From Verrucomicrobiota bacterium (GTDB lineage: Bacteria; Verrucomicrobiota; Verrucomicrobiia; Verrucomicrobiales; DEV007): 14,378 bases of DNA. Location of the stretch: NCBI GenBank assembly GCA_020629815.1, contig JAHDCN010000030.1, forward strand, positions 1-14,378, written 5' to 3'. The number at the start of each line of letters is the position of its first letter. The first letter of the stretch is position 1. Made by a program: the position numbers and the translations under genes. Positions 1 through 6,442 of this stretch are shown in pieces. The notes under the pieces are model-generated. The model saw nothing but the letters and a program-made list of their open reading frames with translations. It did not search any database and was not told the DNA's origin.

Positions 1-3000
1 TCATCATCGAGCGAGAAACTGAAGTCTTCTTCGAAACGGAGTTTCTTGTAGCGCTGCAGGCCGAGAATAAAAATAAAGGTCGAACGATCATCCGCCGGTG
101 CTGAGCCTTCACTCTTTGCCTTCATTTCGGCTGCGACTTCGTTGATCACATCGCCCATTGCATAGGACTCAGGCACTTCTACTCCGTCCAGTTGGGCGAC
201 AGCCCCTTTCAACCAACTCTGACTGTTGGGATCACTGACTGTTCCATCAATCAATATCAATCGGGCTTTCTCGCCCAGCTGCGCGCGGAGCAGACGCAAG
301 CCGATTGCGGTCATCGCTTCGACGGCATCCTCCCTCTGACCGACGATCATCAGGTTGCTGCCACTTTGACGTTCGAAGCCAACTTCGGTCGGTCCTTTGA
401 TTGCATTCGGCGCACCCAGGAAAAGAGTCGGTGTACCCTGGCGTGGTCCGGCTGCAATGACGTCGGAAATAATCCGGTCGTCGGCTACGCGAGCCGGTGC
501 GTTGCCTTCGAAAATCACCTGAGGCTTGCCGGCCAGTCCGCGCTTCTCAGCGATCCCATGGAGCTGTGAAAGATACTTGTCGCGCTCATCTTCGTCGAGC
601 CACACCACCTGGAAGGGTGAGTTGGCTTCGATCGCCCCGGCGCTGTCGTTGTAAATCCCCTCCCCCGGACGCGTCAGCATACGCGGTGCCGGGTTGGTGT
701 CGTCCATGATCAGGTAGGCGTCTGCCTCGTTACACTGCAAAGCGATCCGGATCACCATCTGACCAAGCGTCGCGCGCGCGAGAGTGAACGCACCGCCGAG
801 CGTTTGCGATCCGAGAATCGCGTGAATTCCGAAGGCACGGCCCTGACGAACGATCCGGTCCATCAACACAGCAGCCTGTTGGGATATCTGGTCGTCTTCG
901 ACAAAAAATTCCTGAAACTCGTCAATCAGAAGCAAGGTTCGCGGAACCGGGTCAGGACCACCTGCTTTCTTGTAGCCAGCTACATCCTGAACTCCCATCT
1001 CACGAAATTTCTCACCGCGCTCTTTCAATTCTTCATCCAGTCGCTGCAAAACGCTCAGGCCGAATTCACGATCCGACTCGATCGCAATCACCCGGGCATG
1101 AGGCAGCTTGGCGTCGGCATAAGCTTTGAACTCCACCCCTTTTTTGAAATCAATCAAATAGAACTCCACCTGATCGGGATCACACCAAAGAGCCAGGTTG
1201 GTGATCATGATGTGGAACAAGGTCGACTTACCGGAACCGGTTTTGCCCGCAATCAACGCATGCTGGCAGGTTCCCTTACCAATCGCCAGTTCCTGCAACT
1301 TCGTCGCACCGGTTCGACCGATGGGCACACGCAATTCCTTTGAAGTTTCCAAGCTCCAAAATTCCTCTTTACTCGGAGCAATACAATCGAACGGAACCTC
1401 AATCCGGTTGGAGTCGCGGTTGGCCTCACCAATCCTGTGGATCCATTCAATCAATTGATCACTTTCGGGTGGCTGAAACAGATTCAACCTGGCTCCCGAC
1501 ACGGGGGAATCTTTCAGGAAGAACCCGTTCATATTGGAGCGGATACAGACACTGTTCTTACGCAAATCATCGATCTTAAAACCCGGAGGCAGATCATGGC
1601 GCTGGTCATGGTGGATCAGCGTAAAGACACCACAACGGGCACCGGCAGATGCGATACTCAGCAGGCGACGCGCAGCTTCTTCGGAAAACTGCTGGGGAAA
1701 ATCCGCAATTACGATGAAGTGATACCGCTCGGCAATCGTTCCGGCTTTTTCGTTGTATTCGGAAATCGTTTCGTACTCGTTACGCAGATACATTTGGATC
1801 ACCTTCTCCATGTGATCGCATAACTCACCGAGGCGTTTCTCAATCTGATCTGATTGCGTCCGGATCCGGGTGTTGATCAGGATTTCCTCGTAGTCCGCCA
1901 GATGCATCAACCCCGCGAAGCTTTCGCCGAGTCCCACTGGATCGAAGAGGGAGAAAGACATTCTTCCCGGAGGCGAACCCGCCAGTAATCCGAGCACCAG
2001 ATAGTTGAGTGCTTTGATCGCTTCGTCGCGTCCACCATTCTTAGTTTCGATCAGAATCGATCCCTGCTCTGGAAAGTTCAGACGCAAAGGCACTTCGAAC
2101 TCTCCACTCGAATTCAGCGCCAGCTTTTCGCTCTTTGGCAAACCGATCTCTGCACCCTCAAGGGAAAATGCCAGGCTGCCATAGACCAGCTCTTCATTCA
2201 TTTCCGACGGTGGACTCCATGCCGACGAACCAGCTTCCAGCCAACTGGTCTCTGCGGCGAGGGCACCAGCTTCGGCCTGAAGTGACTGCTCACCGGGCAG
2301 CAGTTTCTCCGACCATTCGCTAAACAGTCCCAGTCGCTGGGCGTCAAAATCCTGCACGGTGGTGCCGCTCTCTTCTCCTTCTCCCAGCCCTGCAATTTGC
2401 TGATCTCTCTGTGCCTCGATTCCTGCCACCTTTGAACGGAGTCCGTCCTTGATCGAATCCAACCTCCGCTGCAATCCAGCACTCAGTCGCTGACGCAAAC
2501 TTTCGCCACGGGCATCGACTTCTTCCGCTGAGTCATATCGCCGATCTGCCGCGACATCGCCAGTCGACTGCAGACCGGACTGAAAATTTTGTTTCACTGC
2601 GTTGTATTCCGCGTCAAATGCCTCTTTCTGCGCATCGACATCCAGCTGCGCTACGGCATTGAATTGAGCACACATTCGTTTGCCCTTGCCGAGCGTGGAC
2701 GACATTTTTTTTGAGAAGGAAGCCGCTGCGCCCCAGCCAAAGAGATACAGCATCAGGACAAATGCCAACACGGCACCGATACCGATCAGCACCTTGATGA
2801 GCTCCAGCTCGATTCCCAACTTCGGCAACACCGGAATCGCAATCCCACCGAGGATCGCCACAACGATCAACCACAGCCAGATTGGCACCCGGGAAAACAT
2901 GCCGACAAACGGGTTCTTCGAAAATCCCGACACCGCTTTACCGGTCTTTTTGTAAATTGCCGGCAAAGAGGAAAGATCGGGTGCGCCTGCTTCCGCGGAA

Positions 3001-3539
3001 ACATTGACCGCTTTCTCCAAACGGCCGGATAGCTTTTTGCGAAAGGATGGAAAGCCCTTCAGCCCGGTCAGAGCCTTTTCCTCCAGAGCATCAAACTTGG
3101 CACCGAAATCCTGCGACGTGGCTGTGACTTGATCGTAGTTGGCTTTTGCGGCAGCGAGACCGTCTTTGCGACGCTTTTCAGCGTCCATCATCTGCTTCTG
3201 CAGGTTGGCGCGGTATTCGCCCTCCTTGCCCTGGATCATCTGGATCAGTTCATTGCGAACCGTCATGGTCGCTTTGTCGATCCGACCCTTGCGATCAGCA
3301 AAAACCTTTTCGGTCTGTTCCCGCTGCTGTTCCGCTGCGGCCTCAGCCAGCTTGATTTGTTCCTTAGCCTGCTTGTTGATCTGGACCTCCGCCTCCGCCA
3401 GATCCTGACGCAGGTTGGAGTCCTTCAGTTTTTCCGCATAGTCAATCTTCCCCTCGCGTTCCGCAAAAGAACGGACGCCGCTGGTGAAGGACTCGATCAG
3501 GTCAAGGGTTCCGGAGGTGGAAAGTCGTTTAGAGCTCAC
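1..3539 (-). CDS. FtsK/SpoIIIE-type membrane ATPase, EccC/EssC-like (partial)
   Basis: This is an open frame of 1179 codons from a GTG start to the window edge, so the C-terminus is missing. Residues 1-200 are rich in Glu, Lys, Gln and Ala and look coiled-coil. Two membrane segments lie near 218-240 and 247-271, followed by a second charged helical stretch to about 400. The FtsK core has a clear Walker A (GKTGSGKST, 765-773) and Walker B (LLLIDEF, D873-E874). A preceding module around D533 to D613 has the fold pattern (LFDPVG, FIVIADFP) but no P-loop. A following module has VGQREDA (G1067) in place of a P-loop and TFIFILGLQ near 1160. This layout resembles the multi-ATPase motors of type VII/ESX secretion more than the DNA translocase FtsK. 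Its start overlaps the upstream small gene by 11 bp, which suggests translational coupling. The likely role is energising export of the neighbouring W-x-D proteins; that role is inferred. No strong ribosome site precedes the GTG. Confidence 0.92.
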   Translation of the reverse strand, partial: MSSKRLSTSGTLDLIESFTSGVRSFAEREGKIDYAEKLKDSNLRQDLAEAEVQINKQAKEQIKLAEAAAEQQREQTEKVFADRKGRIDKATMTVRNELIQMIQGKEGEYRANLQKQMMDAEKRRKDGLAAAKANYDQVTATSQDFGAKFDALEEKALTGLKGFPSFRKKLSGRLEKAVNVSAEAGAPDLSSLPAIYKKTGKAVSGFSKNPFVGMFSRVPIWLWLIVVAILGGIAIPVLPKLGIELELIKVLIGIGAVLAFVLMLYLFGWGAAASFSKKMSSTLGKGKRMCAQFNAVAQLDVDAQKEAFDAEYNAVKQNFQSGLQSTGDVAADRRYDSAEEVDARGESLRQRLSAGLQRRLDSIKDGLRSKVAGIEAQRDQQIAGLGEGEESGTTVQDFDAQRLGLFSEWSEKLLPGEQSLQAEAGALAAETSWLEAGSSAWSPPSEMNEELVYGSLAFSLEGAEIGLPKSEKLALNSSGEFEVPLRLNFPEQGSILIETKNGGRDEAIKALNYLVLGLLAGSPPGRMSFSLFDPVGLGESFAGLMHLADYEEILINTRIRTQSDQIEKRLGELCDHMEKVIQMYLRNEYETISEYNEKAGTIAERYHFIVIADFPQQFSEEAARRLLSIASAGARCGVFTLIHHDQRHDLPPGFKIDDLRKNSVCIRSNMNGFFLKDSPVSGARLNLFQPPESDQLIEWIHRIGEANRDSNRIEVPFDCIAPSKEEFWSLETSKELRVPIGRTGATKLQELAIGKGTCQHALIAGKTGSGKSTLFHIMITNLALWCDPDQVEFYLIDFKKGVEFKAYADAKLPHARVIAIESDREFGLSVLQRLDEELKERGEKFREMGVQDVAGYKKAGGPDPVPRTLLLIDEFQEFFVEDDQISQQAAVLMDRIVRQGRAFGIHAILGSQTLGGAFTLARATLGQMVIRIALQCNEADAYLIMDDTNPAPRMLTRPGEGIYNDSAGAIEANSPFQVVWLDEDERDKYLSQLHGIAEKRGLAGKPQVIFEGNAPARVADDRIISDVIAAGPRQGTPTLFLGAPNAIKGPTEVGFERQSGSNLMIVGQREDAVEAMTAIGLRLLRAQLGEKARLILIDGTVSDPNSQSWLKGAVAQLDGVEVPESYAMGDVINEVAAEMKAKSEGSAPADDRSTFIFILGLQRYKKLRFEEDFSFSLDD

Positions 3540-3744
3540 AGTCGTGTCTGAGTTTCTTTAAAATTTTATCCAAATCTTCCATCGCTGTCACTGCATTATC
3601 AACCCCATCGAGCAGGGGTTGAATGTAGCTGGCGTCGAATTCTTTCGATTTGGTATCGCGCCAGGTTTGCTGGCAATCCTGCCACTGTCGCGACAGTTCT
3701 TTGGAAAGTCCGGAAAGCCGGGTCCGGCTGGCTTGCATGCTCAT
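3529..3744 (-). CDS. small helical W-x-D protein, possible second WXG100-like member (71 aa)
   Basis: From the ATG at 3744 this encodes 71 residues, predicted all-helical, with no signal peptide or membrane segment. It carries W28-R-D30 followed by F36, the same W-x-D-x5-F spacing as the 90-residue WXG100-like protein upstream (W43-Q-D45, F51). A further W21-Q-D23 lies just before. The W-to-aromatic spacing of 8 is that of classical WXG100 proteins such as ESAT-6. An in-frame ATG at 3801 would give 90 residues but would overlap the upstream gene by 47 bp. I prefer 3744, which leaves a 10 bp gap; 3738 is also possible. Sandwiched between the coiled-coil gene and the ATPase gene, it is probably a component or substrate of the same system. 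Assignment to the WXG100 superfamily is inference from the short motif and context. Confidence 0.72.
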   Translation of the reverse strand: MSMQASRTRLSGLSKELSRQWQDCQQTWRDTKSKEFDASYIQPLLDGVDNAVTAMEDLDKILKKLRHDCEL

Positions 3745-3754
3745 AGAAATCTTC

Positions 3755-4252
3755 TTAGTCACTGCTACCCGAAGAGCCTCCGCCGGGTGATGCATACGCA
3801 TTTAAATTCTTCACAGCTTCCTGCAAATACTGGAGGCCTTTGACCATGTCTGAATCCAGATGGTGGCGAAGCTTATCAACCTTGCGCGCTTCGATCTCGA
3901 CCTTGCTATCGTAGTTGCGCAACCAGGCCGACACCGCACGCAGTTTATTTTCCAGATCGCGAATCTCGCGTCGTTTCTTGTTCACGATCATTTGGTGACC
4001 GGTCTTGGTCTCCTGCAAACCGGAAAGCCGGGCTGAGAAAAGCTCCTGCTCTACCTGTTCGAGTTCCTTCTTTCGGCGCCGCATCTCATGGTCGAGCCGA
4101 AGCTTCTGCTCACTTTGCAGCCAGATACGTGTGCGCTTCACTTCTTCGCTGGCTTCATCGAGAATGACACTCGCCTTCTCAATAAAGACCACCAGCTTGG
4201 AGCGAAAATCCTCCAGCGCCTCAATGTTGGTAACGTTTGCTTTTTCAGCCAA
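3755..4252 (-). CDS. coiled-coil protein of the WXG100/FtsK cluster (165 aa)
   Basis: The product is 165 residues of nearly continuous charged helix (about 10-155), rich in Glu, Lys and Arg with heptad-like spacing, ending in a flexible tail of Ser, Gly and Asp (155-165). There is no signal peptide or membrane segment, so it should be cytoplasmic or exported without Sec. Trp occurs at 44 and 110. The start is a TTG (4252-4250); no ATG lies near the N-terminus, and the conserved-looking sequence begins right after it (ANVTNIEALEDFRSKL). The 21 bases between the preceding TAA and this TTG are pyrimidine-rich with no ribosome site, so translation probably depends on coupling. As far as I recall, similar proteins recur beside WXG100 and FtsK genes in Planctomycetes and Verrucomicrobiota, but I cannot verify that here. 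A chaperone, adaptor or long helical substrate is possible. Confidence 0.83.
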   Translation of the reverse strand: MAEKANVTNIEALEDFRSKLVVFIEKASVILDEASEEVKRTRIWLQSEQKLRLDHEMRRRKKELEQVEQELFSARLSGLQETKTGHQMIVNKKRREIRDLENKLRAVSAWLRNYDSKVEIEARKVDKLRHHLDSDMVKGLQYLQEAVKNLNAYASPGGGSSGSSD

Positions 4253-4273
4253 AGGAAGGAGGGGCTGAGGTTT

Positions 4274-4546
4274 TTATCGCTGACCGAGGTAGTCCTCGAT
4301 TCGTTGAGCCTTGCGCAGCAAGTACGGCCCCTGATGATTCGACGCCTCCATAAACTGGCGCAACACTTTCATCGTATCCTTAAACTCTTCCGCAAACTTG
4401 GCGTGCTCACGGTCCTGCCAGGTTTCACCCAATGCCGCGAAGCGCGCCTGCAGCGAAGACATCGAGTTCTGCAAATCGCCGTTAAAGCGCTTCAGTTCTT
4501 CCGCGAAACGGCGGACTTCATTAGGATCAATCACTGCTTGGGACAT
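4274..4546 (-). CDS. WXG100-like small protein with W-x-D variant motif (90 aa)
   Basis: This 90-residue protein has the size and helix-turn-helix pattern of WXG100/ESAT-6 proteins. A first amphipathic helix covers about 8-37 and a second about 47-80. The turn holds G40-E-T-W43-Q-D45, with Asp where Gly is usual, and F51 and F55 continue the typical aromatic spacing. There is no signal peptide, as expected for type VII substrates. It is the first gene of a four-gene minus-strand run leading to an EccC-like ATPase, which supports the family call. A C-terminal secretion signal (YxxxD/E) is suggested only weakly: the tail reads RKAQRIEDYLGQR and lacks the exact spacing. It may be exported as a dimer or act as a structural component. 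Family membership is fairly secure; export is inferred. Confidence 0.84.
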   Translation of the reverse strand: MSQAVIDPNEVRRFAEELKRFNGDLQNSMSSLQARFAALGETWQDREHAKFAEEFKDTMKVLRQFMEASNHQGPYLLRKAQRIEDYLGQR

Positions 4547-4597: not shown

Positions 4598-6442
4598 ATG
4601 TTTTCATGGAATTCGCATTCCGGAATTCCGGAGCTATTCTTTCGCATGCCGTTTTTCGATGACATAGATGACGAACTTACCAGCGAGTTGACTGCCGACT
4701 TTTCTGATGTCTTCACTGCGATTCGGGACTTGATGAATTTGCTGAACGTCGACTCCTACAAAGAAATGGGTGATGACAATGCTCCTCTGGAAAACTTGCT
4801 CAACAGTGAGAAAAAGTTGGCTGAAGAACTGCGACATGACCTGCGTGATTCCCTGCCGGAAATTCCCGATCCCTATACCATTCATGCCTTTCTCACTGCA
4901 TACCGGATGGAAGCGCGTTACCCGGAGTCTGTAGGAGATTTTTCGGAAACGGTCTCCTCCATTGAGTTACAAACGCTGCCGGAATTTCGAGTTCGCAAAT
5001 TGGATCCACAGGTTCGGGAAAAAGTGTATCGCTCACTTTGCGAGAAGTTTGCACTCTCGGACCGTGCGCTGAATTTGATCGAGGTCGAATACGCCAAAGC
5101 GAAACAACAGCTGCAGCGGCGTCGCGAGTTCACTGATGCAGTCCGCGAAATTCTGATCACTCCCGACAACGAACCTGTGCCACCCGAACGCCGGAAAGAG
5201 ATTTTCGATCTGTATTTCCCCGGAAACCCATTGCGGGCGAGTGAAGTCGAAATGGTCATCACCCGAACCTGTCTATACTGGTCGATTCCAAAAAAGGGCG
5301 AGATCGAGCCTCGCGATTCCGAAGCAGAAACCGAAGAGGTGGAGGCCTGGCTCAAATATACAGGACGCTTCTCCTACCAGTATTTCAGCCACTTCCCGAC
5401 ATTCAGTTCGTTCGATGGCCGGGATGCCGACTCAAAGTTGCTGGAAACGCTAGGCAAAAAGCTCGGCTGGAAAGAAAGTGAGATCATCGATCTGCTCAAC
5501 TCCTCAACTACTATCGAGAAAACCTCCGAGATCGAAAAATACCTGATTCATGACACGTGGGGACACATGTGGCAGGGCGACCTGACCAATCTGCGCCAGC
5601 TCTACGATCGCATGGAGAGCCTGAAAACCCCGATCGATGCCAGTGATCATCTTACCCTGCCGAATGGCAATGTGATTTCGCTTCTTGATCTGCTTTACCT
5701 CACCCGGGAAGGCACTATTCGCTACGATGAGGAGATGGCAGCGGAATACATTGATGAGTGGATTCGCGTTCGTGTTGAAGCCCTGCTCGCTCCGATTGTT
5801 GCCGAGCTCACCGCTGACGTCGTTGAATTCAAATACCAGCTCGACAATTGCGGCTCGGACACTCCCCTTCCCTCTTCATCTCTGTTTTCCGCCAATCCGG
5901 CGAAGCTCGACTTCGCCTGGGTCGATATCGGATATTTTGTGCGAACCCTGCAACGGACCAATGCCGCTTACACCAAGAGCGAAGAGCTGCGCACCAATCT
6001 GATTGACCGGGTCTGTTTGCTGTTAAAACAAAAGTATCCCCGCCAATACAAGAATATCGAATCACCGGAAGCGCTGCGAACCGAAATTGTCGCACACCTC
6101 GAAAGCTTTTTCGGACAGGTAGAGGAAAGGCAGGCCCGCCACCTGAATCAGGAACTGATCACAAAAGACGCCGACGGTGACGCAGTTCCTGAAGCCAATG
6201 GGTTCTTTCTTTTATTCACTAACTTCCTGCGAATTCAGTTCACCTTGAATCAACTGATTCGGGAGCACCTGCCTCCTCATTCGGATGACGAGCCCGATTT
6301 GTTCAATGTGCTGATCCTGTTCATCGCCCACTATTTTCAAGACGATCCGCTGCATCGCTTCTGGGATCTCGACGAAGCACTTGGCGACTATCTTCCCGGG
6401 CTTTTGGCCATAGCTCGTGAAGCCGAAAAGAGAGAAGCGTAA
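4598..6442 (+). CDS. unrecognised 614-residue soluble protein
   Basis: I do not recognise this family. The product is long, acidic and mostly helical, with no signal peptide or membrane segment. Residues 318-326 (HDTWGHMWQ) form a dense His/Trp cluster preceded by a helix, which could bind a metal or be a structural core. Other distinctive stretches are DLYFPGNPLRASEVEMV (about 204-220) and an acidic helical C-terminus. The ATG at 4598 has AAGG 13 bases upstream. An alternative ATG at 4646 (M17, MPFFDDIDDEL) has GGAG 12 bases upstream and may be the true start, because residues 1-16 look unlike the rest. It is the only plus-strand gene, divergent from the WXG100/FtsK cluster across 51 bp, so it could be regulated with that cluster or belong to it. 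Base composition is like its neighbours. Confidence 0.85.
   Translation: MFSWNSHSGIPELFFRMPFFDDIDDELTSELTADFSDVFTAIRDLMNLLNVDSYKEMGDDNAPLENLLNSEKKLAEELRHDLRDSLPEIPDPYTIHAFLTAYRMEARYPESVGDFSETVSSIELQTLPEFRVRKLDPQVREKVYRSLCEKFALSDRALNLIEVEYAKAKQQLQRRREFTDAVREILITPDNEPVPPERRKEIFDLYFPGNPLRASEVEMVITRTCLYWSIPKKGEIEPRDSEAETEEVEAWLKYTGRFSYQYFSHFPTFSSFDGRDADSKLLETLGKKLGWKESEIIDLLNSSTTIEKTSEIEKYLIHDTWGHMWQGDLTNLRQLYDRMESLKTPIDASDHLTLPNGNVISLLDLLYLTREGTIRYDEEMAAEYIDEWIRVRVEALLAPIVAELTADVVEFKYQLDNCGSDTPLPSSSLFSANPAKLDFAWVDIGYFVRTLQRTNAAYTKSEELRTNLIDRVCLLLKQKYPRQYKNIESPEALRTEIVAHLESFFGQVEERQARHLNQELITKDADGDAVPEANGFFLLFTNFLRIQFTLNQLIREHLPPHSDDEPDLFNVLILFIAHYFQDDPLHRFWDLDEALGDYLPGLLAIAREAEKREA

What the first reader, a model, noticed from the sequence alone, without database searches (positions are those of the whole stretch)
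1..4546. ESX/type VII-like gene set in a diderm bacterium
Two small W-x-D proteins, a coiled-coil protein and an EccC/EssC-like membrane ATPase form one tight minus-strand cluster. The rest of the window (ExbB/ExbD, RlpA-like, secreted TPR proteins) points to an outer membrane. Type VII systems are best known from monoderm and mycobacterial envelopes; how a substrate would cross a Gram-negative outer membrane is unclear. No EccB, EccD, EccE, mycosin or EsaA/EssB homologue is visible, so this may be a minimal or different machine. Its left part lies outside the window.
Basis: partly seen in the sequence, partly recalled or inferred. Interest (0 to 1): 0.8.

Follow-up and report, generated by a model that had tools for sequence, protein, structure and literature searches.

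The report
Stripped-down type VII-like secretion operon
Four adjacent genes in an uncultured Verrucomicrobiota bacterium encode a membrane motor related to type VII secretion ATPases, a typical type VII small protein and two further helical proteins; the same four-gene set recurs in this two-membrane phylum without the usual partner genes beside it, so it may be a very small export machine, although export has not been shown.

Summary
Four minus-strand genes (W1, CC, W2, ATPase; 3-4546) form a tight operon. In 80 related loci plus the window the order is intact in 72 of 75 where the contig reaches far enough (6 more are cut); no flanking gene is conserved. W1 is a true WXG100 protein (72 of 72 members match PF06013; best PDB relatives HP0062, EsxB). 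W2 is a 71-aa helix-WxD-helix hairpin, WXG100-like by fold only. The ATPase has two predicted membrane helices and one active motor between degenerate modules; fold searches put EccC/EssC first, yet its motor forms a clade apart from both EssC and FtsK. EccB, EccD, YukD, EssB, EsaA and LXG were not found over cut-off in 56 genomes; the EccB and EccD searches had no ringing control. Tree and layout tie it to the EssC-like/WXG100 module of CoCoNuT/TerY-P clusters: three such clusters in the same phylum lack membrane helices and carry VWA, PP2C, kinase and helicase genes. A stand-alone WXG100/FtsK operon is already mentioned in print. So this is a membrane-anchored, stand-alone variant of a known kind. 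Export, substrate and outer-membrane passage are untested.

The parts
4274..4546 (-). W1: WXG100-family protein, 90 aa, WxD turn (WQD in the window)
   Evidence: PF06013 32.6 bits over cut-off 27.3; 72 of 72 members match PF06013 at E<=0.01; PDB relatives HP0062 1.5e-10 and EsxB 7.3e-8; 80% mean column identity
3755..4252 (-). CC: predicted coiled-coil protein, 165 aa, no known family
   Evidence: found in 75 of 81 loci by profile; no Pfam family matches more than 6 of 75 members; no credible PDB relative (best E 0.032); no hydrophobic membrane segment in 75 of 75
3529..3744 (-). W2: 71-aa helical hairpin with WRD at the turn (ORF 3529-3801; likely start 3744)
3..3539 (-). EccC/EssC-like membrane ATPase, 1179 aa seen, C-terminus cut by the contig end
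   Evidence: PF01580 116.8 bits; PDB: T. curvata EccC 1.8e-30, EccC5 7.3e-27, YukB 6.5e-19, FtsK 8.7e-8; model of relative L005 finds EccC first
2826..2882 (-). ATPase hydrophobic segment 1 (residues 220-238), predicted membrane helix
   Evidence: hydropathy 2.62; in the aligned zone two segments in 67 of 76 rows at threshold 1.4, three in 6, one in 3; 65, 1 and 10 at 1.6
2736..2792 (-). ATPase hydrophobic segment 2 (residues 250-268), predicted membrane helix
   Evidence: hydropathy 2.59
1335..2132 (-). ATPase first cytosolic module (residues 470-735), degenerate, EccC 'DUF'-like fold
540..1334 (-). ATPase active motor module (residues 736-1000); Walker A GKTGSGKS at 1224-1247, Walker B LIDEF at 915-929
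   Evidence: GxxxxGK[ST] in 81 of 81 rows; Walker A and DEF invariant in A4
3..452 (-). ATPase last module (residues 1030 onward, cut), degenerate NTPase fold

Best explanation
It is a stand-alone, membrane-anchored type VII-like module: an EccC/EssC-type ATPase with two inner-membrane helices, a WXG100 protein (W1), a second hairpin (W2) and a cytosolic coiled-coil protein (CC). Most likely the ATPase forms a hexamer whose membrane helices line or gate an inner-membrane pore; W1, as a homodimer or with W2, binds the degenerate C-terminal ATPase module through its very conserved C-terminal helix and is moved, or moves a cargo, out of the cytoplasm by ATP hydrolysis in the single active motor; CC and the ATPase's N-terminal coiled coil act as a cytosolic scaffold or chaperone. 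Shown here by computation: families, folds, hydrophobic segments, single intact motor, conserved operon and co-occurrence. Inferred: hexamer, pore, W1-ATPase docking, export, and release into the periplasm rather than the medium (no conserved neighbour could be an outer-membrane part).
For: W1 is a WXG100 protein. The ATPase's best sequence relatives in the PDB are EccC and YukB; the eight best Foldseek chains are EccC/EssC (E 3.9e-31 to 7.8e-15), the first aligned over 979 columns, while FtsK (5.2e-12) aligns over 352-412; the rows of the VIA list that reach into the part before the motor (from model residue 193-228) are all EccC/YukB chains. Two membrane segments are usual. Operon order in 72 of 75 uncut loci. 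Co-occurrence: of 56 genomes (own included) 28 have both ATPase and WXG100, 26 neither, G016 and G021 one each, and in G021 W1 runs off the contig; in the phylum sample all 20 ATPase genomes of 288 also have W1, G240 has W1 alone.
Against: No export has been measured. The curated EccC and EssC cut-offs are not met (110 and 88 bits against 509 and 778), and the two genuine FtsKs tested score 105-133 bits on the same models, so those scores are not diagnostic. The full-length EccC superposition is loose (TM 0.32-0.40, rmsd 15-16 A), and by VIA the motor alone ties between FtsK (25.2) and EccC (24.8). The motor is a clade of its own, apart from EssC and FtsK. No W1 (72) or W2 (76) ends in a YxxxD/E signal. 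Two stand-alone ATPases, L080 and L081, lack the membrane stretch. The nearest relatives sit in restriction-type CoCoNuT clusters, and the motor hits defence models SspH (2.2e-24) and mads_8 (2e-17).
Confidence: 0.55

Rival explanations
1. A non-secretory conflict or stress module: like its CoCoNuT/TerY-P relatives, the ATPase with WXG100 and coiled-coil partners senses or acts on something inside the cell (phage component, nucleic acid, damaged envelope) and the WXG-like proteins are adaptors, not export substrates.
For: The ATPase tree joins the stand-alone proteins with three CoCoNuT-type ATPases and L123 at 100/99; those three lie with VWA, PP2C, kinase-like and helicase genes; the L119 helicase hits the defence model MkoA and the window ATPase's motor hits SspH and mads_8. 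Published section on Type III-A CoCoNuTs. Distribution is patchy (20 of 288).
Against: Stand-alone ATPases usually have two membrane segments, the three CoCoNuT-type ATPases none at threshold 1.6; no nuclease family among the Pfam hits of CC; W1 and W2 hit no PADLOC model, CC only weakly JetC (0.00088); flanks are not shared and in the contigs inspected look by eye like housekeeping genes.
Confidence: 0.27
2. A DNA translocase of the FtsK/SpoIIIE kind with unrelated small neighbours.
Against: The genome has a further, FtsK-sized protein hit weakly by the query (G000:C108, 887-aa frame); no FtsK gamma, alpha or 4TM domain at E<=1; 20.6 bits on the FtsK model against 418 and 441 for two true FtsKs; own clade; WXG100 is co-inherited.
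Confidence: 0.07
3. An ordinary T7SS whose membrane partners are encoded elsewhere in the genome.
For: Partners can be unlinked; EccB and EccD searches had no ringing control; a YukD hit just under cut-off (25.1 against 27 bits) lies in G025 and a weak EccD hit (22.1 against 95) in G050, both operon carriers; this MAG is 69% complete.
Against: YukD, EssB and EsaA 0 of 56 over cut-off with B. subtilis ringing.
Confidence: 0.08

Closest known systems
[quoted passage not shown]
   Same: EssC-like ATPase with N-terminal coiled coil and only the central of three ATPase domains active; one WXG100 plus a second WXG100-like protein; a coiled-coil protein; joined in the tree at 100/99. Three clusters of this layout were found here (L119, L122, L124).
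   Different: Window type: usually two membrane segments (none at threshold 1.6 in the three CoCoNuT-type ATPases, as the paper says); no nuclease family in CC; no shared VWA/PP2C/kinase/helicase neighbours. The CC profile does not hit the CoCoNuT coiled-coil proteins; the W2 profile gives only two weak hits (E 0.0019 and 0.0012), both to the WXG100 proteins there.
Helicobacter pylori HP0062/HP0066 (PMC3397514 passages, PMC4978471 section 17 whole)
   Same: HP0062 is the best PDB relative of W1 and the top VIA row of W2; WRD turn; reported in a cluster with an FtsK/SpoIIIE-domain protein in a Gram-negative.
   Different: HP0066 was not compared here; CC and W2 counterparts were not looked for there.
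T7SSa/T7SSb and T7SSc-T7SSj (PMC11217815, passages)
   Same: WXG100 protein plus EccC/EssC-type ATPase; DUF-like module and tandem ATPase-fold modules.
   Different: No YukD/EsaB, EssB or EsaA over cut-off; no FHA domain listed; one intact motor; diderm phylum. That paper covers Gram-positives.
FtsK/SpoIIIE DNA translocase
   Same: Motor fold.
   Different: Own clade, extra modules on both sides of the motor, another FtsK-sized protein in the genome.

Membership tests
WXG100 (W1) | Match to PF06013 over the curated cut-off | tested here: met
   32.6 bits against 27.3 for the window protein; 72 of 72 members match at E<=0.01
WXG100 (W1) | Trp in the hairpin turn, in WxG or a variant | tested here: met
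   W43 and D45 invariant, WxD in 72 of 72, any WxG in 1 of 72; HP0062 also has WRD (passage). The fold of W1 itself was not predicted; its profile aligns end to end with HP0062 and EsxB
WXG100 (W1) | C-terminal pattern or YxxxD/E signal seen in many members (both motifs recalled; regular expressions are mine) | tested here: inconclusive
   3 of 72 and 0 of 72; not a feature of every member as far as I recall
WXG100 (W2) | Match to PF06013 | tested here: not met
   1 of 76 at E<=0.01 (the window, 18.1 bits, under cut-off) and 1 of 76 for PF25547; profile comparison with W1 Prob 1.6
WXG100 (W2) | Helix-WxG-helix hairpin fold | tested here: inconclusive
Type VII secretion system (general) | EccC/EssC-type ATPase | tested here: inconclusive
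   fold and PDB sequence matches favour EccC/EssC; NCBIfam cut-offs not reached; separate clade
Type VII secretion system (general) | WXG100 protein encoded with it | tested here: met
Type VII secretion system (general) | Measured ATPase-dependent export of WXG100 protein | not testable with these tools
   needs cells
T7SSb | EsaB/YukD, EssB, EsaA | tested here: not met
   0 of 56 over cut-off each, B. subtilis control rings; one YukD hit just under cut-off in G025
T7SSa (ESX) | EccB, EccD | tested here: inconclusive
   0 of 56 over cut-off, but no control genome rang; one weak EccD hit in G050; EccE and mycosin not searched
T7SSc-T7SSj | subtype-specific partners (kinase, phosphatase, VWA, FHA proteins) | not tested
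   only seen that no flanking family is shared by more than 12 of 81 loci
CoCoNuT III-A EssC extension | VWA, PP2C, kinase and helicase genes around the module | tested here: not met
   no such shared family around the stand-alone loci; present in L119, L122, L124
CoCoNuT III-A EssC extension | ATPase without membrane helices | tested here: not met
   window 2 segments; 67 of 76 rows two, 6 three, 3 one at threshold 1.4; L080 and L081 are exceptions without the stretch, L060, L066, L076 could not be scored
FtsK DNA translocase | FtsK gamma and alpha domains, FtsK equivalog score | tested here: not met
   none listed at E<=1 (C-terminus cut, the 120 listed relatives show only PF01580 and two small NTPase families); 20.6 bits against cut-off 1566

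The most novel reading that the evidence does not exclude
A single-membrane-protein type VII system in a diderm phylum: the EccC-like ATPase alone, with its own two helices per subunit, forms the inner-membrane channel, and the near-invariant W1 (80% mean column identity against 58% for the ATPase from about residue 201 on) is not a variable effector but a fixed structural or carrier part delivered to the periplasm.
Probability: 0.3. Interest if true: 0.8.

Novelty: new variant of a known kind. Interest (0 to 1): 0.55.

Why it matters
If it exports, it would show the smallest set of parts a type VII machine needs, in bacteria with an outer membrane where such gene pairs have been noted but not confirmed functionally (review passage). 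It also offers a bridge between type VII secretion and the WXG100/EssC-like modules embedded in CoCoNuT/TerY-P clusters: a related core with membrane helices and without the defence neighbours. One locus comes from a record not marked as a MAG, so presumably from an isolate (Verrucomicrobium sp. BvORR106, L035), which makes the question testable.
Full report
WHAT IS THERE. The window is the left part of a 17,277-base contig (C582) of a 69% complete MAG. Four minus-strand genes lie in 3-4546: W1 (4274-4546), CC (3755-4252), W2 (3529-3744 by comparison with relatives; ORF to 3801) and a large ATPase (3-3539, cut by the contig end). W1 and W2 carry WQD and WRD.

CONSERVATION. By my reading 75 of the 80 titles name a Verrucomicrobiota group, four say only 'bacterium' (L021, L052, L055, L064) and one 'Proteobacteria' (L058). 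With the window this makes 81 loci. Profiles found W1 in 72, CC in 75, W2 in 76 and the ATPase in 81. With aligned starts the order W1-CC-W2-ATPase holds in 72 of 81; 6 others are cut by the contig end (L022, L026, L027, L060, L066, L078) and 3 are exceptions (L018 without W1 and CC, L064 without W1, L070 without a W2 hit in the 668 bases before its ATPase). Median gaps are 4, -4 and -8 nt. Outside the four genes no family is shared by more than 12 of 81 loci, the next by 6. So the operon is a unit without fixed neighbours. The window's other listed genes have no hit in the 80 loci at E<=1e-5.

DISTRIBUTION. Of 56 genomes (the window's own included) 29 have an ATPase match above 200 bits and 29 a WXG100 match; 28 have both, 26 neither (tallied by hand). 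G021's W1 runs off its contig; G016's ATPase lies near a contig start. In G043 and G052 the two hits are on different contigs. There are 30 WXG100 matches in these 29 genomes; only G005 has two, each beside an ATPase of the family. In 288 genomes drawn across the phylum the ATPase (E<=1e-60) is in 20 and W1 in 21, all 20 shared, G240 extra; in G059 and G134 they are on different contigs. The system is patchy: for example none of the genus-g4 genomes listed (2.2-3.3 Mb) has it.

W1. PF06013 matches over cut-off in the window, and 72 of 72 members match at E<=0.01. A profile search of the PDB finds Helicobacter HP0062 (1.5e-10), then EsxB (7.3e-8) and weakly EsxA (0.006). Mean column identity is 80%, against 58% for the ATPase from about residue 201 on, 49% for W2 and 39% for CC (slightly different row sets). 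Such constancy is unlike a diversifying effector (inference).

PARTNERS. In the 56 genomes YukD 0 over cut-off (one hit at 25.1 against 27 bits in G025), EssB 0, EsaA N-terminus 0, LXG 0, all with B. subtilis ringing. EccB 0, and EccD 0 over cut-off (one weak hit in G050), but no control rang. EccE and mycosin were not searched. LptD is over cut-off in 10 of 56, six of them carriers of ATPase and W1, in line with an outer membrane.

RELATIVES IN DEFENCE-TYPE CLUSTERS. G005 has a second ATPase (31% identity). Its locus L119 reads VWA, WXG100, a 445-aa protein, a small protein, ATPase, a short protein with a VWA-like start (by eye; no Pfam hit), PP2C, a weak kinase match, SF1-type helicase. L122 and L124 have the same layout with VWA, WXG100 (30.2 and 36.1 bits), PP2C, kinase (sub-threshold in L122) and helicase. 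This matches the published Type III-A CoCoNuT extension: EssC-like ATPase with N-terminal coiled coil and only the central domain active, no membrane helices, two WXG100 proteins (one without the motif), a coiled-coil nuclease; [quoted passage not shown] The three CoCoNuT-type ATPases have no hydrophobic segment at threshold 1.6, while two divergent stand-alone ones (L118, L121) have two. A Helicobacter paper calls WxG plus FtsK a minimal T7SS and names HP0062/HP0066 (section 17), and a review notes WXG100 with FtsK/SpoIIIE proteins in some Gram-negatives without functional proof (passage). The window type is thus the stand-alone, membrane-anchored branch.

HOW IT MAY WORK. Shown by computation: parts, folds, one intact motor, hydrophobic segments, co-inheritance. 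Inferred from EccC/EssC systems: hexamer, pore, W1 docking on the last ATPase module, export to the periplasm. No conserved neighbour could serve as an outer-membrane part. The defence-module rival is live because the nearest relatives sit in restriction-type clusters and the motor hits the defence models SspH and mads_8.

VERDICT. Real, conserved and of a known kind, in a little-described variant. Interest is moderate to good: the kind is in print; I did not recognise the membrane-anchored four-gene form of this phylum in ten searches of an open-licence library.

Noticed in passing
L119 2-12188, L122 4666-18740, L124 2616-15510: CoCoNuT/TerY-P-like clusters with a WXG100 gene and an EssC-like ATPase, a second system beside the stand-alone one in G005, G221 and G289.
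   Followed up: partly
L123 5285-10615: A third arrangement in G287: an EssC-like ATPase with two adjacent W1-like genes and further small genes on one strand; one hydrophobic segment in the ATPase at threshold 1.6.
   Followed up: partly
window 4598-6442 (+): A 614-aa protein with no Pfam match over cut-off and no NCBIfam match, divergent from the operon and without hit in the 80 operon loci.
   Followed up: no
   Followed up: no
L118, L121: A divergent form of the stand-alone operon on large contigs of G209 and G221, next to genes that look like yajC, secD/F and thiG (named by eye from sequence starts).
   Followed up: partly
L080, L081: Two stand-alone ATPases that seem to lack the membrane stretch; whether this is real or an assembly or start-site matter was not examined.
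   Followed up: no
PMC11090510, section 10: The authors report that Helicobacter Type III-A CoCoNuT genes are split into fragments under the standard code and could not be explained by a known alternative code.
   Followed up: no
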